Shown here piece by piece: positions 12,545 to 35,551 of a stretch of 35,551 nucleotides of DNA. Origin of the DNA: Armatimonadota bacterium (GTDB lineage: Bacteria; Bacillota; Desulfotomaculia; Desulfotomaculales; Nap2-2B); contig JAIMBK010000032.1 of assembly GCA_023511535.1 (NCBI GenBank), positions 1 through 35,551 on the forward strand, given 5' to 3'. Position numbers and translations under genes: made by a program. The first letter of the stretch is position 1, and each line of letters opens with the position of its first letter. The notes below the pieces were generated by a model. That model saw nothing but the letters and a program-made list of their open reading frames with translations. It did not search any database and was not told the origin of the DNA.

Positions 12545-12786
12545 CCCACTACCTCCTTCTTTATATATAATGCATGCGGGTTGGCGGGAAAAACCGTCGA
12601 CCCTCTCTCTTTCTCTTTCCCAATTACTTGCTAACCGACAGGCGCTTGACCCGCTCATTTTTTCCTTTCACCCGTCAATTTAGCCGTTTAAGAGTAAAAC
12701 TAATGAAATTTAAAAAGTGATTGATTAAAATTATCCTTAAGGGCTTTAACCAGGCATTTATAAAGAGTATTAAAGAAGGTTTTAAA

Positions 12787-21978: not shown

Positions 21979-22054
<76 letters not shown>

Positions 22055-22067
22055 GGAAAAACTTAAG

Positions 22068-22098
22068 CCCCGCAAGGAATTGCGGGGTTGTTCTTTTT
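22068..22098 (+). terminator. Rho-independent terminator after tRNA-Trp
   Basis: CCCCGCAA (22068-22075) and TTGCGGGG (22080-22087) form a perfect eight-pair stem with a GGAA tetraloop, followed by a T-rich tract. On the opposite strand it could also stop transcripts from the integrase gene. Confidence 0.85.
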
Positions 22099-22124: not shown

Positions 22125-22146
22125 TTGGGGATAGTTTGGGGATAGT
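22125..22146. repeat. Tandem 11-bp boxes next to the integrase (copy A)
   Basis: TTGGGGATAGT occurs twice in tandem at 22125-22135 and 22136-22146. Related inverted boxes follow (CGTTCCCCAAC and CAATCCCCTAC at about 22157-22177). The pair is repeated exactly at 27589-27610. Short direct repeats about 70 bases from a tRNA attachment site and beside int are typical of integrase arm-type binding sites. Confidence 0.65.
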
Positions 22147-22223
22147 CCCCGCCAAACGTTCCCCAACAATCCCCTACAAGTCAGGAAAATAGCCAATAAA
22201 GAGAAACGGCCTTTTCCGGCCGC

Positions 22224-23450
22224 CTAATTTGCTTTCGCTTTCCCGTTGAACAGCCCCTCCAGCTTGTCCGCCGCCTCCCTGTCGGCGCTCTTCAAAAGGT
22301 GGCCGTAAATGTCCATCGTGGTGGATATGTTGCTGTGCCCTGCCCTGGCGCTGATCGCCTTCGGGTGGACCCCCTCCAGGATGAGCAGGCTTATCGAGGT
22401 ATGGCGCAGGGCATGGAAATTTATGTGCGGCAGGCCGTTCTTCGCCAGGAACTTCGGGAACCACTTGGTAGCTGTATCCGGGTGCATCGGCTTGCCGTCC
22501 CAAGTGGTGAAAAGCCGGTCCGAGCCTTTCCAGAGGTCCCCCACTTTAAGCCTGTTTTCCAGCCAGTCTTTCCGGTACTCCTTCAGCAAGGCCATGACCG
22601 AGCCGGGAACGGCAATTGTCCTTTTGGACGTTTCGTTTTTCGGGTCCTTTTCAAAGGTCCCCTTCCCAGGCAGGTATTGGGCCGCCCGGCGCACGGTGAT
22701 GGTCCCCTTCTCAAAGTCCACATCCTTCCACTCCAGGCCCATCAGCTCCCCCCGCCGGACGGCTGTTGCAAGGTCCAGGGCGATCATCACCCGGTATTTC
22801 AGCGGGGCTTTTTCCAGCGCCTCCAAGAGTGCCGCCGTCTGCTGCTCGTCATAGCAGGGGACCTGCTTTTTCTTCACCTTCGGCGGCTTCACCCGGGCGG
22901 CGGGGTTGGAGGGTATTACCTGCCACTCCACGGCGTCGTTGAAAATTGTTGAAAGCAGCCGGTGGTGGTGCAGGATGGTCCTCTCCGAAAGTTTCCCCGG
23001 CTTGCCGTCTAAGCGGATGCCGTCCTCCTGGAGGTTCTTGTAGAACTCCAGCAGGTGGACCGGCCTGATCTGCTCGATCTTCAGGTGGCCCATGGCGGGG
23101 AAGATCCGGGAATCGAGCAGCTGCCTGTACCGGAACAAAGTTTTCGGCGCCAGGTTGGTTTCGGCATAGTCACGAATCCAGCGGTTGACAAAGTCCTTGA
23201 ACGTAAGCTTTGACGGCGCGACGAACGTCCCCTTCTCAATCTCCAGGACGAATTCCGCAAGAGCCTGCTCCGCTTCCTTCCTGACCCGGCAGCGGGTTAT
23301 TTTGGCGCACCCCTTGCATGACTTTTCCGGGCAGTCAGTGTTTACTGTGACGCTCTTGGTTTTCTTGATTTGGCTTCCCTCGCCGTCCAGCCCGCAGCTT
23401 ACCACCAGGCGCCAGGAGTTTTTACCTCTCTTTTCGATTGACCCAGGCAT
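22224..23450 (-). CDS. int: Tyrosine-family site-specific integrase
   Basis: The 408-residue phage-type integrase has an AP2-like N-terminal arm-binding domain (MPGSIEKRGKNSWRL), a core-binding SAM-like domain (about 80-180) and a catalytic domain with Arg232 (AVRRGEL), His346 and Arg349 (HALRH), His372 (AGHSN) and Tyr382 (IYGH). The N-terminal region carries an unusual four-Cys insertion, Cys40, 45, 48 and 54, which may bind metal. Its 3' end faces tRNA-Trp, consistent with insertion there. The start overlaps the stop of the upstream gene by one base (TAATG), so the two are coupled. Confidence 0.95.
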   Translation of the reverse strand: MPGSIEKRGKNSWRLVVSCGLDGEGSQIKKTKSVTVNTDCPEKSCKGCAKITRCRVRKEAEQALAEFVLEIEKGTFVAPSKLTFKDFVNRWIRDYAETNLAPKTLFRYRQLLDSRIFPAMGHLKIEQIRPVHLLEFYKNLQEDGIRLDGKPGKLSERTILHHHRLLSTIFNDAVEWQVIPSNPAARVKPPKVKKKQVPCYDEQQTAALLEALEKAPLKYRVMIALDLATAVRRGELMGLEWKDVDFEKGTITVRRAAQYLPGKGTFEKDPKNETSKRTIAVPGSVMALLKEYRKDWLENRLKVGDLWKGSDRLFTTWDGKPMHPDTATKWFPKFLAKNGLPHINFHALRHTSISLLILEGVHPKAISARAGHSNISTTMDIYGHLLKSADREAADKLEGLFNGKAKAN

Positions 23451-24313
23451 TAGTTACCACCCTCCTTTTTCTTATTTTCACGATATCTCTTAACCCTGCG
23501 TTTATTAGCCATTAATTGGCATTCAGGGCATAACTTTTGATTCCCATGAATCTCTTCAAAAACACTTCCACAATCGCGGCATTCACGGTATTGGCCTATC
23601 ACGATTTTATAAAAATGCAGCCATATATAGTCCAACAGGGTTAACCCAGCTCTTCCGGGAACGATTCTCCCTTCGTTGTTTATCTGCGGATATTCGCGAA
23701 TGCCGGCAAGATTAATCCTGAGTTTTCCTAAAAGATGGTCCCTATCTCCTTCTTTCCATAACTTGTAGCTTTGTTGAACGCCCGAAATGGCTGTCTGGAA
23801 ATCTAATAGATCCTCATCGCAAACCCCATAGTTTACTGGTGGCATTTGAGCGATATTCCTTTGGGGAGATTCTTTAAAACTGACTCCCAGAAGGCCGTAG
23901 CGGTTGACAAAACCAAGGATGCTATCATGGTCTTTTATGTTCAATTTTAAAACATCTTTTAACAATGACCTTTCATTTGCCGGGTTGATAAAATGAATCC
24001 CTTTGACATCTTGCTGCCAGGTTGGGCTACTTTGTTGCCAGACCCTCCAATATTGCTCCCGGTTGCCAGAAATAAGCCACTTACCGGTAGGTCTTTCGTA
24101 AATTTCTCCTTTTCGCTTTACTATAAACTTACCATCTTCTAAAACCTCCGTATCTTCTTTAAGCTGCTCCGATACTTTTTCCTTGTAGATCCTGTATGGT
24201 GCGTAAACTGGCCAGACAGAGAAAAAAAGGTCCATCTCATCGTTTTTCTTATGAACTCCATTTTTTACGCCATTTTCACTAGAATCCCACTGCGCAGGAA
24301 AAACTTTACTCAT
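23450..24313 (-). CDS. Unknown protein with C-terminal zinc ribbon, coupled to integrase
   Basis: The 287-residue protein has a unique N-terminal region of about 240 residues. The C-terminal block is ECRDCGSVFEE..CPEC followed by NKRRVKRYRENKKK, a four-Cys ribbon plus basic tail similar to CGNR-type and phage zinc fingers. It probably binds nucleic acid. It shares a TAATG junction with the integrase and lies divergent from the XRE regulator, the place where many elements keep their repressor or immunity gene. It is AT-rich compared with the host genes. I do not recognise the family. Confidence 0.75.
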   Translation of the reverse strand: MSKVFPAQWDSSENGVKNGVHKKNDEMDLFFSVWPVYAPYRIYKEKVSEQLKEDTEVLEDGKFIVKRKGEIYERPTGKWLISGNREQYWRVWQQSSPTWQQDVKGIHFINPANERSLLKDVLKLNIKDHDSILGFVNRYGLLGVSFKESPQRNIAQMPPVNYGVCDEDLLDFQTAISGVQQSYKLWKEGDRDHLLGKLRINLAGIREYPQINNEGRIVPGRAGLTLLDYIWLHFYKIVIGQYRECRDCGSVFEEIHGNQKLCPECQLMANKRRVKRYRENKKKEGGN

Positions 24314-24413
24314 TTAGTAACCCCCTTTAATGTAATGCTATTTTATATTTTATCATTACGTTTTTATCTTTACAATAGGGTTTAGATAATTTTTTTGCCA
24401 AGGAGGTTATATT

Positions 24414-24683
24414 GTGCCAAAAATCTCTCGCTTGGAGTTTTTCAGGCGATTGGCAGGCTTAAACCATCGGGAATTTGCTAAAAAATTAGGCGTTGCACCA
24501 ACGAATGTCAGCCTGATTGAGCGCGGATACCGCAAACCCTGGCCCGCTTTTAAGGAACGGGCGGCGGCAGTGTTGCGCGTTGACTATGAAACCTTATGGG
24601 GGGACAACCCCCTGCTTGATCAAATTTTGTCCGGGGAACTAATCCCCGGCGCGGGGGGCGGAAAAAATGAGCGGGCTTCATGA
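24414..24683 (+). CDS. XRE-family HTH regulator
   Basis: The 89-residue protein has a lambda-repressor-like HTH (about residues 5-60: FFRRLAGLNHREFAKKLGV, TNVSLIERGYRKP) and a short C-terminal tail. GTG 24414 follows AAGGAGG. It is the first gene of the rightward operon and diverges from the integrase operon across about 100 AT-rich bases, which must hold both promoters. It probably controls the switch between the two operons. It overlaps the next gene by 17 bases. Confidence 0.85.
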   Translation: MPKISRLEFFRRLAGLNHREFAKKLGVAPTNVSLIERGYRKPWPAFKERAAAVLRVDYETLWGDNPLLDQILSGELIPGAGGGKNERAS

Positions 24684-24906
24684 AAACCTGCGGGCAACGA
24701 TGACCGCAAAACCGGCAGCAAAGTACATCGGGATTAGTTATTGGAAACTCCTGGAACTGGCGAAAGCAGGGAGGGTGCCCCACGTCCGGATCGACGGCAG
24801 AATTTTATTTCGCCGGGAAAGCCTGGACCAGTGGCTTGCGGCCCAGGAGCAGGCAAGCTTAAAGAAAGTAGAACCGGCGGTCAGGGGAATCAGGCGCTTA
24901 AAATAA
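24667..24906 (+). CDS. xis: Excisionase-type MerR-like DNA-binding protein
   Basis: The 79-residue protein has the winged HTH of the excisionase/AlpA class: TAKPAAKYIGISYWKLLELAKAGRVPHVRIDGRILFRRESLDQWL. These proteins bend DNA at attachment sites to direct excision, and some also activate transcription. ATG 24667 follows a G-rich ribosome binding site inside the preceding gene. Its place after the regulator and before the primase fits an excision-replication module. Confidence 0.85.
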   Translation: MSGLHENLRATMTAKPAAKYIGISYWKLLELAKAGRVPHVRIDGRILFRRESLDQWLAAQEQASLKKVEPAVRGIRRLK

Positions 24907-24946
24907 AAACCGGCTGCAGCCGGCTGGTGGAAGAGAGTGTTTTAGA

Positions 24947-27292
24947 TTGAGTGCAACGCAAAAGCAACAGTATAAAAAGCCTCTGGACACCATTCATTCG
25001 TATGTTAAGCTGGGTTGGCCGGTAATTCCCCTCTGCCCTTGTAATCATTCAAGCGTAGGCGCTGCCCATAAAAACACCTGTAAGACTCCCGGCAAAGTTC
25101 CGCTTTTGAGCGGATGGCAAAAGCGTGGCGTGCCTACGGATATTGAAATTGCCCAATGGAAAAAGAACTGGCCCTGGGCGAACATCGGCCTGCTTACAGG
25201 TGAACCGTCCGGGCTGGTGGGCGTGGACGTTGACGGGGACGCCGGGGAGAGGCTTTTGGCTGAATGGTCTAAGGGCGACCTACCGGAAACCTGGGAATTT
25301 CGCCGGGGGGATAAAAGCCGTCGGCTGCTTTACCGGATTCCGCCGGGTATTAAACTGAAAAAATACTCCCAGGCCGAAAGGAAGAAAGAGCATGAAGAAC
25401 TGGCGCTTTTAGGGACCGGCCAGCAAACGGTAATCCCCCCTTCAATACACGCCAGCGGAGACGTTTACCAGTGGGCGCCGGGAAAGGACCCCTGGACATT
25501 TGGTGAACCGGCGCTGGCCCCCCAGTGGATTATCGAGCGCATGACCCGGCAGACGGGGACCAAGAAAACAGCCAGGGAAGAACTTTCCGGCGCCGATTTT
25601 ATGCTGGGTAAGCTGGCCGACAAGTGCGAACGATTCCAGCAGGATTGGGAGGTCCAGCAAAGGGACGGTCTGGATTACGACACGTGGTTCAACTGGGTGG
25701 CCCTGTTTATCGCAGCCGGCCGGGTTGAGGACGCATGGGTATTTTCGCGGGCGGCAAAGAAACATGACCAGCAGAGCGAGCAAATAATCCAGCGGCGCAT
25801 AGAGGACCCGGCCGAGCAGGAAATAGCCCCGACCCGGTGCCTGACGTTCGGCTGCGGCGTGGAGCAGATTGAGAAATGCTTTAAGAAAGTAAACACAAAC
25901 GAGGACGGGGAGATTACCAACAGCCCGGCGGCATTTCTCAAAGAAAAAAGCAGACCGGCCTGGCTGCGTTCAACCAGGATGGGGGTAAAATTCTTCCCCG
26001 GCGTCCTGGCCCGGCATTTGGTTAATAACGAGCGGGTATTCTACGCCGGGGAAACGTTTTTCGCGTACCGGGGGGGCGTCTACCGGGAAATCAGCGATGA
26101 CGAGGCGGCGGCGATGATAAAAAAGTATTTGCCGGATGACTGCTGCAAAAGCTCCTGGATCAATGATGCAATGAACCTCTGGAAGCTGGACGTTTTAAAA
26201 AGCACCGGGGACTTAAACAGGGATCCGTTTATTATCAACCTGAAAAACGGCCTTTTGGATGTAAAGAACGGTATTTTTAGACCGCACGACCCGGACTTTT
26301 TATCAATTGTTCAGCTGAACTGTAACTATGACGAAGGCGCGGGGTGCCCGTTGTTCTTGAAGTTTTTAGGCGAGATCCTGCCGCCGGAAAACGTTTTGTT
26401 GGTGCAGGAATTTTACGGTTACTGCCTGGTGCCCCTGACTTTGGCGCAGAAAGCATTTGTTTTACACGGGCCCGGACAAAGTGGAAAGTCTACAGTCCTA
26501 TCTGTCCTGGAATACATGCTGGGCAAGCAGAATGTATCAAACGTCGAATGGCAGGACCTGGGCGACCGGTTCAAGACGGCGCAGCTCTTTGGAAAGCTGG
26601 CAAATGTCGCGGCGGATTTGCCGGCGCGGGCGATTGAAGATACCGCGACTTTCAAGGCAATTGTCGGAGAAGATACCATCACGGCGGAGCGAAAATTCAA
26701 AAACCCCTTCTCTTTTAAGCCATTTGCGCGGCTGCTCTTCTCCTGCAACCGACTGCCCTACTCGAAAGACCAAACGGGCGCGTTTTACCGCCGGCTGATT
26801 ATTATCCCATTTGAAAACGTGATTCCCGATGACAAGGTAGACAAGCACTTGAAAGAAAAGCTCTTTCAGGAGGTTGACGGGATATTCGCCTGGGCGCTGG
26901 AAGGGCTGCGGCGGCTGATGACAAACAATTTTACTTTCAGCGAAAATGACACGACCCGGGCGCAAATAGAGCGGTACAAAGTAGAGAATTCAAACGTTCT
27001 GGCGTTTATCGCGGAAAACTGCGTGGTTAAACCGGACTGCTATGTTAACCGTGGAAAACTCTACCAGGAATATAAAAAGTTTTGTGAGGAAAACGGCTTT
27101 CGATTTGCGTCGCAAAGAGCTTTTAACCAAGAAATTGAGGCTAATTTTCCCGGAGTTTGGCGTGATCTTCACGGTCCAGAATATGCCCGCGAAAAAGTTT
27201 GGCGTGGAATTGGATTGCTTGATGAGCAAGTTGACGAAAACCCTCGAAGCCTTGAGAATACTGGAAAAGATGACTTTTGGGATAATTTGTAA
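24947..27292 (+). CDS. P4-type primase-polymerase / SF3 helicase
   Basis: The 781-residue replication protein has three parts. An archaeo-eukaryotic-type PrimPol domain comes first (WPVIPLCPC..KTPGKVPL, catalytic VDVDGD near 95). A D5/P4 linker region follows (about 330-470). The SF3 helicase has Walker A GPGQSGKST (about 508-516), ADLPARAIEDTATFKAI, and the arginine-finger region LLFSCNRLPYSKD. It should initiate and unwind DNA at the element's own origin. The C-terminal domain (from about 700) is a winged-helix type. TTG 24947 is the best available start; its ribosome binding site is weak. The repeat-rich spacer follows directly. Confidence 0.92.
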   Translation: MSATQKQQYKKPLDTIHSYVKLGWPVIPLCPCNHSSVGAAHKNTCKTPGKVPLLSGWQKRGVPTDIEIAQWKKNWPWANIGLLTGEPSGLVGVDVDGDAGERLLAEWSKGDLPETWEFRRGDKSRRLLYRIPPGIKLKKYSQAERKKEHEELALLGTGQQTVIPPSIHASGDVYQWAPGKDPWTFGEPALAPQWIIERMTRQTGTKKTAREELSGADFMLGKLADKCERFQQDWEVQQRDGLDYDTWFNWVALFIAAGRVEDAWVFSRAAKKHDQQSEQIIQRRIEDPAEQEIAPTRCLTFGCGVEQIEKCFKKVNTNEDGEITNSPAAFLKEKSRPAWLRSTRMGVKFFPGVLARHLVNNERVFYAGETFFAYRGGVYREISDDEAAAMIKKYLPDDCCKSSWINDAMNLWKLDVLKSTGDLNRDPFIINLKNGLLDVKNGIFRPHDPDFLSIVQLNCNYDEGAGCPLFLKFLGEILPPENVLLVQEFYGYCLVPLTLAQKAFVLHGPGQSGKSTVLSVLEYMLGKQNVSNVEWQDLGDRFKTAQLFGKLANVAADLPARAIEDTATFKAIVGEDTITAERKFKNPFSFKPFARLLFSCNRLPYSKDQTGAFYRRLIIIPFENVIPDDKVDKHLKEKLFQEVDGIFAWALEGLRRLMTNNFTFSENDTTRAQIERYKVENSNVLAFIAENCVVKPDCYVNRGKLYQEYKKFCEENGFRFASQRAFNQEIEANFPGVWRDLHGPEYAREKVWRGIGLLDEQVDENPRSLENTGKDDFWDNL

Positions 27293-27463
27293 CTGATCCA
27301 GCTGAACCGAATGAACCGGTTCAGCCCTATTTAAATATGCCGTACCACAAACTTCTTTGAATCCTTTTAAACCAAGAAGTGTATTACAGGAAGTTTAAAT
27401 AGAAAAAACCGGTTCATCCGGTACAGCCGGTTCATCCGGTACAGCAGCCAAAAACCCGTAAAG
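27293..27463 (+). other. Candidate replication origin of the element
   Basis: This non-coding stretch after the primase-helicase contains several structures: inverted repeat CTGAACCG/CGGTTCAG, inverted ACTTCTT/AAGAAGT around an AT-rich centre, TTTAAAT blocks, and a perfect 18-base tandem repeat at 27409-27444. Iterons beside an SF3 primase-helicase gene are the usual origin layout in phage satellites and P4-like plasmids. This is inference from layout only. Confidence 0.4.
27409..27444. repeat. 18-bp tandem direct repeat
   Basis: CCGGTTCATCCGGTACAG is repeated exactly twice, head to tail (27409-27426 and 27427-27444). Related CCGGTTCAG occurs near 27314-27323. These are possible iterons. Confidence 0.8.
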
Positions 27464-27584
27464 CCTTGAGAATACTGCATTTTGGGAAGATGTCGTTAAA
27501 TACGTTTACCAAGCTATGGCAGCACCCCTGCGGACAATTAATCCGCAGGCGTACCCGGAAGCTGCACGGCGCAAGGCTTTGTAA
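27464..27584 (+). pseudogene. Remnant related to the primase C-terminus
   Basis: One frame reads SLENTAFWEDVVKYVYQ, continuing AMAAPLRTINPQAYPEAARR and ending KAL before TAA at 27582-27584. It is preceded immediately by a stop codon. The start of this segment echoes the end of the primase (SLENTGKDDFWDNL), and at DNA level GCCTTGAGAATACTG is shared. It may be the tail of an older version of the gene separated by the repeat region. No start codon or ribosome binding site is visible. Confidence 0.3.
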
Positions 27585-27588
27585 GCCC

Positions 27589-27610
27589 TTGGGGATAGTT
27601 TGGGGATAGT
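27589..27610. repeat. Tandem 11-bp boxes (copy B)
   Basis: TTGGGGATAGT twice in tandem, identical over 22 bases to 22125-22146 and in the same orientation, 5,464 bases away. It lies between the primase remnant and the first small phage gene. Confidence 0.7.
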
Positions 27611-27696: not shown

Positions 27697-27873
27697 ATGG
27701 CAGAACAATTCATTACAATCAAATTAACAAAATGCCTGCTGTTCCTGACCGAAGATGAAGTGCTTTCCCTGCTCCGGGCAAACCCGCTCATCTGGGAGAG
27801 GGCGCTGCGGCGCGGGAAGTTTATCCGCCGGGCGGCAAAAGCCAGGGAGCCGAAAGGAAAGATCAGGGCATGA
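27697..27873 (+). CDS. Small phage protein of unknown function
   Basis: The 58-residue protein starts at ATG 27697 after GGGAG and reads MAEQFITIKL, continuing to WERALRRGKFIRRAAKARE. The basic helical C-terminus suggests nucleic acid contact. Similar short proteins occur before terminase genes in Firmicutes prophages. The longer frame from 27610 has no ribosome binding site. It overlaps the next gene by four bases (ATGA). Confidence 0.6.
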   Translation: MAEQFITIKLTKCLLFLTEDEVLSLLRANPLIWERALRRGKFIRRAAKAREPKGKIRA

Positions 27874-28298
27874 GGAAGCCGGGGGCGGAGACGGAGAACA
27901 TCGGCCGCCTTCTGGCCGAGGACAACCGGGAAAAGCGCCGGGCCCGGGGCGGCCAGTTCGTGGGCAAGAAATCTCCCAGGGTGCTGGTCCTTCCCTCGTT
28001 TATGGAGACCGGCCGCGGCCCCCCGTGGCGGGCGATAGCGCCTACCCTGGTCTGGGTGAACATTGTAACCGGTGAGGTATATGTCAACCGGTGGCCGAAT
28101 GACCGGCTAGCAGAAACCAGATTCGGAGTAAGTCATGACCAAGCACGAGCGCAGGCAGATGTAATCGCGCAAATGGAAACAGGAAGCAAGAAAGCGGCTA
28201 AAGCGCCGCAGCCGGAGGTTAAACCATGGCGAGAACAGGCAGAAGCCGTAAAGGCGTCGGCGGCCCCAGGACCCCCGAGGGACGGCAACGGGCGCTGA
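27870..28298 (+). CDS. Phage hypothetical protein
   Basis: The 142-residue protein has a charged N-terminus, a central beta-rich segment (PPWRAIAPTLVWVNIVTGEVYVNRWP) and a Pro/Ala/Lys-rich tail that overlaps the start of the terminase small subunit. I do not recognise it. Coupling to both neighbours supports that it is real. Confidence 0.6.
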   Translation: MRKPGAETENIGRLLAEDNREKRRARGGQFVGKKSPRVLVLPSFMETGRGPPWRAIAPTLVWVNIVTGEVYVNRWPNDRLAETRFGVSHDQARAQADVIAQMETGSKKAAKAPQPEVKPWREQAEAVKASAAPGPPRDGNGR

Positions 28299-31351: not shown

Positions 31352-31642
31352 ATGTTGGACGATACAAAGCTTCTAAAGAAAGAAATAAAAGAAATCATAA
31401 GGAAGGCCGACGAGGGGTACGCACAACTCAGGAAATTAGATATCGACAAACTCCTGGCGGAGGAACCCCCGTTCGGCCCGTCCCGCGCCCAGCGCCGGGA
31501 GTGGGAACGCTGGCGCAAAAAGGTAGACAGGCGCCAGGCGGAAGTTGACAGGTTAATAGCACTGGGCAAAACCCTGGAAAATCGCCTAAACAAACTGACC
31601 GCGTTATACGAGCAGCAAAAGAGGAGGTGTAAAAATGCCTGA
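31352..31642 (+). CDS. Small helical phage protein
   Basis: The 96-residue charged protein (MLDDTKLLKKEIKEIIRKAD..RREWERWRKKVDRRQAEVDRL) is predicted to be coiled coil. ATG 31352 follows GAGGTGAC. It overlaps the tape-measure gene by eight bases, so it may be a tail assembly factor. The family is not recognised. Confidence 0.6.
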   Translation: MLDDTKLLKKEIKEIIRKADEGYAQLRKLDIDKLLAEEPPFGPSRAQRREWERWRKKVDRRQAEVDRLIALGKTLENRLNKLTALYEQQKRRCKNA

Positions 31643-32585
31643 AAAAGAATTCTACCGGCTGGAAATAGGGATTGGGGTAACTGGCACCGAAAAAACCAAA
31701 AGTGAACTCAAAGCCATGGAGCGGTTTGTTGAGCAGACCCGTAAACGCGGGGAGATGCTTAACCGGATGCGGATCAGCCCCACCGTCCGCCTGATCGACC
31801 GCATATCCGGGCCGGCCAGGCGGATTGAAGCCAACCTGAACCGCCTTAGTGGTGTGCACAGAGTGACGATTGAAGCTATGGACCGAACTACCAATGTAGT
31901 TAGGCGAATCACCGGTACCCTAACCAGCCCTTTGACCATGTTGGGCGCCGGCGCCGGGATGGCCGGACTGATCGGATACCCGCTCAAATTAGCCGGGGAA
32001 ATGGACCGGGCTCAGAATTCCATTTTGAACTACTCTGCCTCTATAGAAGAAGGCAGGAAAAACTTTGAAGAGCTGGTTGCCTTCGCGCTGAAGTCCCCGG
32101 TCTATGACGTTCCGTTTGTGGCCCAGATGGGCGGCCGCCTGCTGGCTGTAACCAAGGACATAAACTTCACGAAGAGGGCCCTGGAAGCCTTCGGGAACTC
32201 GATGCTCTTTACCGGAGCTTCTTTGGACGACGTTAAATTTGCCTTCCGGGGATTCCAGCAGATCGCCTCCAAGGGCAAGCTGCAAATGGAGGAACTATAC
32301 CAGGTTACCGAAAACCTGAACATTCCTCTTCAGTGGGTGCAAGATCAGCTGGGCATTACAGGTGATCAGTTAAGTGACTTGGGCAGGCTGGGGATTCCAG
32401 CGCGGCGGGCGATGGAAGGCATCGTCCGGGTGCTTGAAACTCGCTTCCCGAAGGCTAACTTTAACGAGGACCTGTTGGCCCTGGCAACGAACATAAAAGA
32501 AACTTCCCGGACCATCCTCTGGTATTTCGGCCAGGGGATGAAGCCTGCGTTTCTGCGCATCCTGCAGTGTAGGTTCTCATTTTAG
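31635..32585 (+). CDS. Phage tail tape-measure protein, N-terminal fragment
   Basis: The 316-residue frame matches the N-terminal part of a tape-measure protein: beta-rich start, repeated helices, hydrophobic TSPLTMLGAGAGMAGLIGYPLKLAGEMD and AQMGGRLLAVTKD..GASLDDVKFAFRGFQQIASKGKLQMEELYQ. Such proteins usually have 600-2,000 residues. The natural frame ends at about 32567 in KPAFLRILQ and then runs six codons into foreign DNA (CRFSF and stop). The gene is therefore broken by the transposon on its right. ATG 31635 follows AAGAGGAGG. Confidence 0.85.
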   Translation: MPEKEFYRLEIGIGVTGTEKTKSELKAMERFVEQTRKRGEMLNRMRISPTVRLIDRISGPARRIEANLNRLSGVHRVTIEAMDRTTNVVRRITGTLTSPLTMLGAGAGMAGLIGYPLKLAGEMDRAQNSILNYSASIEEGRKNFEELVAFALKSPVYDVPFVAQMGGRLLAVTKDINFTKRALEAFGNSMLFTGASLDDVKFAFRGFQQIASKGKLQMEELYQVTENLNIPLQWVQDQLGITGDQLSDLGRLGIPARRAMEGIVRVLETRFPKANFNEDLLALATNIKETSRTILWYFGQGMKPAFLRILQCRFSF

Positions 32586-32770: not shown

Positions 32771-33304
32771 CTAAAGTTTCGCCGTTTTCGGCCTGTTTGC
32801 TCGAAAAGCTAATATTTCTGCCCTTGCTTCCCGTAATTTTTCCTGGTAAACTGTCCTAAACCAACCTAACCGGCTCCTCGTCGGCGGATCTGATTTTAGT
32901 TTATCAGCTACTTTGCAAATGGCCTCAATCATTTCCCCTGGGCCATAGCCCAGCTTCCTGGCTAAATCCAGGGCAACCGGCAGCAAATCAAGGAAACCTG
33001 TCCGGAGAAAGTATGACTTAAGCTCGGCTACCTCCTGCTCACCAGAATCTTTTTCCCGGACAGACGGACACAGCCTGTCCCAAAAAACTTTGTACTCGTC
33101 GCAATGCCTGAAAACATAGCCGCGCTTGGCCATTTCCTTTTGCCCCCGGACAATTGCCCCGGGGCTAAGACCAGTTAAGGAGGAGATTTCTCGAACGCTA
33201 ATTTTTACCCATTGTCTGCCATTTGACCGGGCCAGAACTGCCAGGGTAAGCTTTAACTCGGCCGGATCATTGATCTTTAGCAGGCATTCAAAAACGTTCT
33301 CCAC
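32771..33304 (-). CDS. Winged-helix transposon accessory protein
   Basis: The 177-residue protein has an N-terminal winged HTH (ELKLTLAVLARSNGRQWVKI, LSPGAIVRGQKEMAKRGYVF) and a helical C-terminal half with GYGPGEMIEAICKVADKL..WFRTVYQEKLREAR. It resembles DnaD/replication-initiator-like HTH proteins. It is the third gene of the cassette, 18 bases after the ATPase. Its role may be target or end recognition, or regulation; this is inference. Confidence 0.65.
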   Translation of the reverse strand: MENVFECLLKINDPAELKLTLAVLARSNGRQWVKISVREISSLTGLSPGAIVRGQKEMAKRGYVFRHCDEYKVFWDRLCPSVREKDSGEQEVAELKSYFLRTGFLDLLPVALDLARKLGYGPGEMIEAICKVADKLKSDPPTRSRLGWFRTVYQEKLREARAEILAFRANRPKTAKL

Positions 33305-33322
33305 CTGGTATATCCGCCCTTT

Positions 33323-34123
33323 TTAAAAATTTAACTCCTGCTGGGCCTGGTAGACCACTTCTTCGTCGATCTGTTTTTGTCTTTTCGCGCAAGCGCATAA
33401 AAGACAGGCCGTCATCAGATTGTTTACCAGCCGGGGCAACCCGTTGGTGATTGAATAAATCGCCGCATAGGCAGCCGGGGTGATTATCTCTTCGGACAAC
33501 CCGGCCAGCTTGAACCTGCTCTGGCAGTAAAAAGGCAACTCTTCTTCCTTTAACCCGTGCAAAAAGTAATGCACCGTCAGCCTCTGCCGCAAGGGGTTGT
33601 TGACGTTTAAGGAGAGTTTGTTTCTGATCAGCGGCTGCCCGGCGAGGATCAAAACAAAAGGGTTTTTGGAGTCCATCTGAAAATTAAAGAGCAATCTTAA
33701 GTCTTCCAGCACCTTGTTAGAAGCAAGCTGGATCTCGTCTAAGATAATCACCGGCGTAATCCGCCGGTCATAATAAAGGGAAGAAATAGCTTGCTGGATC
33801 TGGTGGAAGAGGGCCACCTTCTTGTACCTGGGTTCTTCCCCCAAAGTCAGCGCCAAACCCTGGTAGAATTCCAGCACCGTCACCGTGGACAGGGCGAAGT
33901 AGCAAACCTTAAACAGCGCCGGGTTCAAACTGGCGGCGTACCTGCCCAGGGCCGCCGACTTGCCCGCTCCGGACTCCCCGGCCAAAAGCCCGATCCCCCT
34001 TACCTCCTGCAGGTATTTGAGCCGGGAGTCCAACTCCTTTAAACAGGCGCTTAAAAACAGGTGCTCCGGAGGGATTTCTTTTGTAAAAGGATTATGCTTT
34101 AAGCCAAAAAACTGCTTAAACAT
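33323..34123 (-). CDS. ExeA/TniB-like AAA+ ATPase of transposon
   Basis: The 266-residue AAA+ ATPase opens MFKQFFGLKHNPF, the ExeA-type N-terminus. Walker A is GESGAGKS (49-56), Walker B VIILDEIQ (Asp129, Glu130), sensor region LILAGQP, and a C-terminal lid NGLPRLVNNLM. Such ATPases (TnsC, TniB, MuB-like) select targets and activate a DDE transposase. ATG 34123 shares its A with the transposase stop (TGATG), and GAAGGTGA precedes it. A TTG at 34126 is a less likely start. Confidence 0.88.
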   Translation of the reverse strand: MFKQFFGLKHNPFTKEIPPEHLFLSACLKELDSRLKYLQEVRGIGLLAGESGAGKSAALGRYAASLNPALFKVCYFALSTVTVLEFYQGLALTLGEEPRYKKVALFHQIQQAISSLYYDRRITPVIILDEIQLASNKVLEDLRLLFNFQMDSKNPFVLILAGQPLIRNKLSLNVNNPLRQRLTVHYFLHGLKEEELPFYCQSRFKLAGLSEEIITPAAYAAIYSITNGLPRLVNNLMTACLLCACAKRQKQIDEEVVYQAQQELNF

Positions 34124-34690
34124 CAATCTTCACCTTCTTCGGCAAGTAAGCTGGTAAAGGAAATACTCGCCACGGGAGCGCCTGGCGCAGGCGTCCGCTC
34201 TTCCGGATCTTTTGCCGGCCGCCCCCGCCCCTTTCTTTTTACGTGGGCGTTGTCGTGGAAATTCACCTGCCGGGCCTCCCCCACTTTTATCCCGTCCTGG
34301 TACAAAAACACTGGCCGGGCGGGGTTGGCCAGCCACTCGGGTTCGTACCTTACCTCCACCCGGGAGTTGGCCAGCTGGGGAGGAGCTTCATAAAGAATTT
34401 TTTCCAAAGAAAAGGTGCCGTCGTGGTTTACCTTCCGGCTGACCCGCAAAAGGAAATACTCCTCCAGGAGCGCCGGATCGGTAAGGACGTTTAAGCGGTG
34501 CGCCTGGGACATAAAGTAATCTAAGGGGCTCATGTTCAAAGTGCGGTGAATTTTCCGCTGGTAATCTTCATCTAACCATTGCCAGAAACGTAGATTGAGC
34601 TCCTCTAAAGTTTTGATTTTTTCCGGAACGAGGGCGCTTAAAAACCGAAGGCGAACGGTTTTAAAAAATCTTTCAATTTTTCCCTTTTTA
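34123..34690 (-). pseudogene. DDE (Mu/rve-type) transposase, C-terminal fragment
   Basis: The frame open to about 34690 reads GKIERFFKTVRLRFLSALVP, then EELNLRFWQWLDEDYQRKIH before the internal ATG at 34539. It ends with a Mu-C-like beta barrel (SRVEVRYEPEWL..VFLYQDGIKVGEARQVN) and a basic tail. GKIERFF contains the last catalytic Glu of the DDE triad. The two catalytic Asp residues and N-terminal HTH are missing because the gene is cut by the palindromic element at 34682-34713. Confidence 0.75.
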
Positions 34691-34713
34691 TGTAGAGCTC
34701 TACATAAAAAGGG
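34682..34713. repeat. 32-bp perfect palindrome at the junction
   Basis: The half-site CCCTTTTTATGTAGAG (34682-34697) is followed at once by its exact reverse complement (34698-34713). It contains TTATGTAGAGC, the same sequence as the 12-base inverted repeat at 34731/34784. It looks like two element ends joined back to back at the point where the transposase frame is lost. Confidence 0.85.
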
Positions 34714-34730
34714 TTATGGAGAGTAAAAGT

Positions 34731-34795
34731 TTATGTAGAGCCAACCCCTGAAACAGGTTAAGATATTGAATCAAAACCGGATCGGCTCTACATAA
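34731..34795. repeat. 12-bp inverted repeat flanking 41 bases
   Basis: TTATGTAGAGCC (34731-34742) and GGCTCTACATAA (34784-34795) are perfect reverse complements. They lie between the palindrome and the 3' end of the tyrosine recombinase gene, and are candidate recombinase binding sites at the element end. Confidence 0.75.
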
Positions 34796-34801
34796 CGATA
34801 T

Positions 34802-35545
34802 TTATTTCCCTAAATTCTGTAACCACTCCAACAAGTCCGCATTTTGCTGCCATACCGGCAACTCATCGGATACCACATCGGCATACGCTTTTTCCAGTGC
34901 CTTTCTCTTCATGCTACTATCGGCCTTGGCATAAATTTCAGTTGTTTGAACATTGACGTGGCCAAGCAGGTCACGGATGTAAATCAGATTAACGCCGGAC
35001 TGGAGCAAATGCATGGCTTTGCTGTGACGCAGGACATGGGGCGAAATTGCATCCGGGAAACATTCCGGAAACAGCTCTTTTGCCTTACTGAAATACTTTT
35101 TCAGGATGTATGCTATTCCCGATCGGGTCAACTTGTTGCCCCCGCTGTTGCGAAATAGCGGGTATTCGTTGCATTGAGGCAAATAAAGCTTGTTATCTTT
35201 CAGGTATTGTTCGAGTAATTTGACCATAGGCTCCATGAGGGGAACGATCCTGGTTTTATTGCCCTTTCCTGTAAGCTTGACGGTTGCCGGTGGATGAAGC
35301 CTTATGTCCGCCACTTTCACATCGGCAATTTCCTGCACCCTGGCGCCGCTGTCATAAATCAGGCTGAGCAGAACCAGATCCCGTCTCCCGTCTTTCGTAT
35401 TTCTATCCGGCATGTCCAGCAGATTTTTAATGGCGTCGAGGTTCAGATAGTTGATTGATTTCTTCCTGACCTTCTGTGAACGGTCAATAGTTTTGGATGA
35501 AAAATGGCCAATAATTTTGGACGATTTTTTCCAGTTAATTAACAA
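34802..35545 (-). CDS. Tyrosine recombinase of a transposable element, N-terminally truncated
   Basis: The 247-residue frame has a complete tyrosine recombinase catalytic domain: SGARVQEIADV (Arg), the HVLRHSKAMHLLQ box (His, Arg), LLGHVNVQTTEIYAKAD (His and Tyr). Relatives are about 330 residues with an N-terminal core-binding domain, often in groups of recombinases. Here the natural sequence seems to begin at KVRKKSINYLNLDAIKNLL (about 35474). The first 24 residues (MLINWKKSSKIIGHFSSKTI plus DRSQ) are translated from the adjacent IS-like end, so the gene is probably inactive. Confidence 0.75.
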   Translation of the reverse strand: MLINWKKSSKIIGHFSSKTIDRSQKVRKKSINYLNLDAIKNLLDMPDRNTKDGRRDLVLLSLIYDSGARVQEIADVKVADIRLHPPATVKLTGKGNKTRIVPLMEPMVKLLEQYLKDNKLYLPQCNEYPLFRNSGGNKLTRSGIAYILKKYFSKAKELFPECFPDAISPHVLRHSKAMHLLQSGVNLIYIRDLLGHVNVQTTEIYAKADSSMKRKALEKAYADVVSDELPVWQQNADLLEWLQNLGK

Positions 35546-35551
35546 AGAGAT
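35475..35551. mobile_element. Terminus of an IS21-like element (partial)
   Basis: From TGTGAACGG at 35475 the DNA contains two imperfect 24-base tandem units, GGTCAATAGTTTTGGATG... and GGCCAATAATTTTGGACG.... TG-starting ends with multiple internal repeats of TTTTGGAC type are characteristic of IS21-family insertion sequences. The transposase genes would lie beyond the window. Family assignment is from memory of end structure only. Confidence 0.4.

What the first reader, a model, noticed from the sequence alone, without database searches (positions are those of the whole stretch)
22125..27610. Identical paired 11-bp boxes bracket the int-xis-primase module
TTGGGGATAGT occurs as a tandem pair at 22125-22146 and again, identical over all 22 bases and in the same orientation, at 27589-27610. 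The first pair lies about 70 bases from the tRNA end and is followed by inverted relatives. They could be integrase arm sites at the two ends of a 5.5-kb element, which would then end before the phage packaging genes. Alternatively they could be replication or regulatory sites.
Basis: partly seen in the sequence, partly recalled or inferred. Interest (0 to 1): 0.65.

Follow-up and report, generated by a model that had tools for sequence, protein, structure and literature searches.

The report
Integrase arm sites, one pair stranded
The repeated 22-base motif next to the tRNA is very probably the docking site that a prophage's integrase uses to insert into the tRNA gene; the second copy 5.5 kb away looks like a misplaced copy of that docking site and does not mark the end of a small mobile element.

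Summary
In detail: TTGGGGATAGT is an identical tandem pair at 22125-22146 and 27589-27610, and the pair occurs nowhere else in the 3.18-Mb assembly. The left pair is very probably the integrase's P' arm-type site. Relatives using other tRNAs have a tandem 11-bp pair of their own sequence at the same place (11 of 13 distinct loci strictly, the other two more loosely). Nine of ten relatives with both ends found carry a co-oriented pair of the same unit 122-138 bp before the tRNA-half core at the far end. Box sequence tracks the integrase N-terminal domain (Mantel r=0.65, p=0.0002), not the tRNA used. The right pair looks like the partner P-arm pair, but it ends no element: no tRNA-Trp half follows it. 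In collinear relative G062:C18, int-xis-primase-small ORF-TerS-TerL runs on with no pair and no boundary, and complete relatives carry no internal pair. Best reading: an arm pair stranded at a mosaic joint in a degraded prophage in tRNA-Trp. 'Arm sites' holds; '5.5-kb element' fails. The architecture is of a known kind; binding itself was not tested.

The parts
21979..22054 (+). tRNA-Trp (cca), integration target; its 3' part (from the anticodon loop in relatives) is the att core
   Evidence: ARAGORN and Rfam; duplicated tRNA halves at the far ends of relatives
22066..22089 (+). terminator-like hairpin between tRNA and pair 1, also seen in many relatives
   Evidence: relatives read
22125..22146 (+). 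pair 1: two direct 11-bp P' arm-type boxes at attL
22156..22176 (-). two degenerate inverted boxes (9/11 each)
22224..23450 (-). tyrosine integrase, 408 aa, open reading frame intact
   Evidence: Pfam PF00589, PF14659; PHROG 1
23450..24313 (-). 287-aa ORF; positional counterpart of ORFs next to int in relatives
24414..24683 (+). HTH_3 regulator
24667..24906 (+). HTH_17 excisionase-like protein
24947..27292 (+). Prim-Pol / P4-D5-type primase-helicase
27293..27444 (+). iteron-like repeats in inverted arms around an AT-rich spacer; candidate replication origin (inferred)
   Evidence: fold z -6.0
27462..27584 (+). orphan ORF tail (SLENTAFWEDVV...ARRKAL*), sharing a 17-bp exact repeat with the primase 3' end
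27589..27610 (+). pair 2: stranded P-arm-like pair, no core beside it
27697..27873 (+). 58-aa ORF of a family common in mobile elements of the class; shows the element continues
27870..28298 (+). orf142, conserved after the small ORF in G062 and own contig C100
28226..28777 (+). small terminase
   Evidence: PF05119
28716..30269 (+). large terminase
31635..32585 (+). tape-measure fragment, cut off before a transposon-like segment

Best explanation
The window holds the left part of a degraded prophage integrated in tRNA-Trp. Pair 1 is the P' arm-type site: two direct 11-bp boxes bound by the N-terminal domain of the adjacent tyrosine integrase, placed about 70 bp from the tRNA 3' end so that integrase can bridge them to the strand-exchange site in the tRNA. 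In a complete element a co-oriented pair of the same unit (P arm) sits 122-138 bp inside the core at the other end. Pair 2 is a copy of that kind of site, but stranded: it lies in a mosaic joint between the replication module and the small ORF/terminase module, without a core, presumably left by recombination between related elements at this locus. It ends no element and is probably inert for integration. Shown by comparison: position, spacing, orientation, two pairs per complete element, covariation with the integrase N-terminus, collinearity through 27.6 kb in a relative. Inferred: DNA binding itself, and the route by which pair 2 came there.
For: Own-sequence tandem 11-bp pair at the int/tRNA junction in 11 of 13 distinct relatives, two more with looser pairs; background 70 of 3300 windows. 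Co-oriented same-unit pair before the far core in 9 of 10 relatives with both ends, no further internal pair in those scanned. Box similarity vs integrase N-terminus r 0.65, p 0.0002; partial given catalytic domain 0.63; tRNA 0.02. Pair 2: no tRNA half; no pair upstream of the small ORF in about 30 relatives; collinear G062:C18 without pair or break; DNA homology to other elements begins only at the small ORF; 17-bp repeat and orphan ORF tail in the joint.
Against: No binding data. The true right end is not in the assembly, so the element's own P arm was not seen. The origin of pair 2 is not identified: flanks do not convincingly match any known P arm and the ORF tail has no relative. Identity over all 22 bases could also reflect selection. 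Three of the nine two-ended relatives were found by searching with the box itself.
Confidence: 0.72

Rival explanations
1. Former 5.5-kb mini-element: a deletion derivative with int-xis-primase only once ended just right of pair 2; its attR core was later lost and packaging genes of a second, related element now abut it.
For: Pair 2 has P-arm sequence and orientation; small elements with this att layout exist (G106 3.1 kb, G109 8.7 kb); tandem att remnants occur in relatives (G015:C139, G106).
Against: No core; no inverted third box; the next gene is the one that follows the primase in G008 and G062.
Confidence: 0.13
2. Functional internal integrase-binding or regulatory site acting on replication or the late operon.
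For: Exact identity to pair 1; 86 bp upstream of the small ORF and terminase genes; next to the origin-like array.
Against: Absent there in about 30 relatives and internal in none of the complete elements scanned; no promoter-like match at the site.
Confidence: 0.08
3. Replication iterons or operators unrelated to integrase.
For: Primase gene is upstream of pair 2; repeats are common near origins.
Against: Pair 1 position is locked to the tRNA in relatives whatever their replication genes; box follows the integrase N-terminus; another repeat array fits an origin better.
Confidence: 0.04
4. Assembly misjoin at the repeat.
For: Draft genome in 136 contigs; small-ORF relatives exist on other contigs of it (C18, C53, C100).
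Against: 22 bp is short for a misjoin; the joint carries a further repeat and a remnant ORF, typical of real mosaicism.
Confidence: 0.03

Closest known systems
attP of Cluster K mycobacteriophages (CrimD, Pixie), and of Giles and L5 (PMC3203893)
   Same: pairs of 11-bp arm-type repeats on both sides of a tRNA/tmRNA core, hairpin between core and one pair; box sequence linked to the integrase N-terminus; direct orientation in Giles, L5 and mostly Pixie
   Different: CrimD pairs are inverted to each other; different box sequences and hosts; no stranded internal pair described in the passages read
attP doubled motif of helper-embedded PICIs (PMC10111431)
   Same: doubled motif in two co-oriented copies at fixed distances (81 and 132 bp) from the crossover
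   Different: other motif, Gram-negative satellites, targets in phage late genes instead of tRNA
Arm repeats of Oenococcus prophages IntF/IntB (PMC8074189)
   Same: direct repeats in attP arms that change with the integrase N-terminal domain
   Different: 10-bp units, distributed 2 + 4 around the core

Membership tests
Arm-type sites of a bivalent tyrosine integrase (pair 1) | short direct repeats at fixed spacing and distance beside the att core, next to int | tested here: met
Arm-type sites of a bivalent tyrosine integrase (pair 1) | matching sites on both sides of the core | tested here: inconclusive
   met in 9 of 10 relatives with both ends; the window's right end is missing
Arm-type sites of a bivalent tyrosine integrase (pair 1) | recognised by the integrase N-terminal domain | tested here: inconclusive
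   strong covariation but no binding assay
P arm of a functional attR (pair 2) | tRNA-half core 122-138 bp beyond the pair | tested here: not met
Self-contained 5.5-kb integrative element | attL and attR direct repeats at both ends | tested here: not met
Self-contained 5.5-kb integrative element | gene order breaks at 27.6 kb and host sequence resumes | tested here: not met
   collinear G062:C18; host flank of G005 not found in the window
Replication iterons (pair 2) | array tied to the replication gene in relatives | tested here: not met
   no such pair after primase or before the small ORF in relatives
Temperate phage (prophage) as a whole | int, replication, packaging and structural genes in one element | tested here: inconclusive
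   int, primase, TerS, TerL, tape-measure fragment found; portal and capsid not found in the window; right end outside it

The most novel reading that the evidence does not exclude
Pair 2 is a functional third integrase-binding locus inside the prophage, kept identical by selection, which tethers integrase near the replication origin or late operon and so couples excision to replication or packaging.
Probability: 0.08. Interest if true: 0.5.

Novelty: new member of a known kind. Interest (0 to 1): 0.3.

Why it matters
It gives a simple grammar for the attachment sites of a group of Firmicutes phages and small islands (3 to 45 kb): tRNA 3' half, often a hairpin, an 11-bp direct pair at about +70, and a co-oriented pair about 125 bp inside the other end. 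Box sequence follows the integrase N-terminus and not the tRNA used. This lets element ends be called from sequence, and it shows that an arm pair by itself is no proof of an element boundary.

Tried and rejected
attR search in window and genome with the tRNA-Trp 3' end and by local alignment near pair 2: nothing. Flanks of pair 2 against flanks of known P and P' arms: nothing convincing, best p 0.025 in 20 tests. Source of the ORF tail 27462-27584: no relative in loci, PHROGs or NCBIfam. Host flank of the empty G005 site in the own genome: orthologue on contig C44 among unrelated neighbours, no att seen. Viral contigs: primase no relative, TerL 26-31% identical only, small ORF one weak hit. 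The hit 'Mycolicibacterium phage J1' looks like an unreliable record and was not used. Promoter scan: no match at pair 2.

Full report
Observation. The two 22-bp pairs are exact and co-oriented at the stated coordinates and unique in the assembly. Four box matches against 0.54 expected, with no shuffle reaching four, exclude chance. The tRNA is tRNA-Trp, 21979-22054.

Surroundings. Left to right: integrase (-), a 287-aa ORF (-), HTH_3 regulator, HTH_17 excisionase-like protein, Prim-Pol/D5 primase, a 404-nt interval holding pair 2, a 58-aa ORF, orf142, small and large terminase, two coiled-coil-like ORFs, and a tape-measure fragment that stops at 32585 before a transposon-like segment running to the contig end. 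Portal and capsid genes were not found between large terminase and tape measure, so the prophage looks degraded; its right end is not in the window.

What pair 1 is. Relatives of the integrase were fetched and the DNA between int and tRNA was read. Of 13 distinct loci scored, 11 show a tandem period-11 pair with at most one mismatch (10 of them starting 62-73 nt past the tRNA 3' end, one at about 49); the other two (G020, G021) have pairs with two mismatches at the same place. Random 170-nt stretches meet a similar criterion in 70 of 3300 cases. The units differ between relatives, so this is a shared layout and not a shared sequence.

Both ends could be found for ten relatives through the duplicated tRNA half: G008 (13.7 kb), G014 (14.8), G019 (21.3), G020 (14.2), G021 (13.9), G023 (38.3), G026 (44.5), G106 (3.1), G109 (8.7), G115 (12.0). 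In nine of them a co-oriented pair of the same unit lies 122-138 bp before the core at the far end; agreement between the two pairs is 0-2 mismatches of 22 except in G020 and G021 (5). G023 has a tandem TTGACGCAAA-type repeat at its far end by eye, but no pair was scored at its tRNA side, so it is left out. G106, G109 and G115 were found by searching with the box, so only their second pair and att repeats are independent evidence. G016, which also uses tRNA-Trp and the same box, has the pair 138 bp before a tRNA-Trp half. In the elements scanned throughout there is no further internal pair.

Across 16 integrases, box similarity follows the N-terminal 68 residues (Mantel r 0.65, p 0.0002), also after removing the catalytic domain (0.63). 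The catalytic domain adds little once the N-terminus is removed (0.09), and tRNA identity does not matter (0.02). The register of the boxes was set by hand from their position relative to the tRNA. This is what a site bound by the arm-binding domain should show; binding was not tested.

What pair 2 is. It has the sequence and orientation of a P arm but not its setting. A tRNA-Trp half would be expected at about 27711-27727; that place lies in the 58-aa ORF, and alignment finds nothing better than shuffled sequence. The inverted third box seen beside several P arms is missing. The 58-aa ORF belongs to a family found in 31 of 113 genomes of the class, also in the elements of G008, G062, G109 and G115. 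About 30 members were inspected: the few period-11 repeats within 900 bp upstream have other sequences and positions.

The best comparison is G062:C18: tRNA-Thr, pair, int (61% identical), orf, HTH, xis, primase, the same small ORF, orf142, HNH, small terminase, large terminase, with no pair between primase and small ORF. In same-genus genome G005 the genes upstream of tRNA-Trp are conserved, the element is absent, and none of the host genes downstream matches the window.

How pair 2 arose is inferred. DNA homology to other elements starts only at the small ORF, so the interval is a module joint. It contains a 17-bp exact repeat (27247-27263, 27461-27477), an iteron-like inverted array (27293-27444), an orphan ORF tail ending 4 nt before pair 2, then pair 2. 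Recombination between two related elements at this locus, one contributing its right-end arm, would leave this picture. A working internal site is possible but has no support from relatives.

Literature. Paired 11-bp arm sites flanking a core, with a hairpin between core and one pair, are described for mycobacteriophage CrimD, and direct pairs for Giles and L5 (PMC3203893). Co-oriented doubled motifs at 81 and 132 bp from the crossover are described for helper-embedded PICIs (PMC10111431). Arm repeats that change with the integrase N-terminus are described for Oenococcus phages (PMC8074189). This is a new member of that kind; the stranded pair is a local oddity.

Noticed in passing
window 27293-27444: Iteron-like repeats (CCGGTTCATCCGGTACAG type) in inverted arms around an AT-rich spacer just after the primase gene, fold z-score -6; a candidate replication origin. 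The region after the primase in G062 also has inverted repeats.
   Followed up: partly
window 27247-27263 and 27461-27477: 17-bp exact direct repeat: the primase 3' end recurs 214 bp on, in frame with an orphan 40-codon ORF tail.
   Followed up: partly
window 32771-35551: Transposon-like segment (MarR-like protein, AAA ATPase, Mu-transposase C-terminal fragment, tyrosine recombinase) that follows the cut tape-measure gene and ends the contig.
   Followed up: partly
L167/L168 (G008:C30 65394-79207): 13.8-kb element with 61-bp att repeats carrying int, primase, P27-type small terminase and an HK97-type capsid gene; no large terminase, portal or tail gene was recognised among its listed ORFs. Candidate capsid-encoding satellite.
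   Followed up: partly
L219 7000-12000 (G106:C5): 3.1-kb element with both att repeats and arm pairs, an internally deleted integrase and an Abi_2 family gene.
   Followed up: partly
L172 about 12600-12740 (G015:C139): A tRNA-Gly 3' remnant followed by a hairpin and an arm pair with no integrase beside it: another stranded attachment-site piece.
   Followed up: partly
L220, L174: In G109 and G016 the integrase gene lies beside the P arm (far end), not beside the tRNA as in most relatives.
   Followed up: no
window 27697-27873: 58-aa ORF family without a match in Pfam, PHROGs or NCBIfam, yet found in 31 of 113 genomes of the class, up to four copies in one genome.
   Followed up: partly
MZ417522.1 (L184): 'Mycolicibacterium phage J1' (marked UNVERIFIED) combines phiX174-type genes with an integrase 46% identical to this one; possibly a chimeric record.
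   Followed up: no
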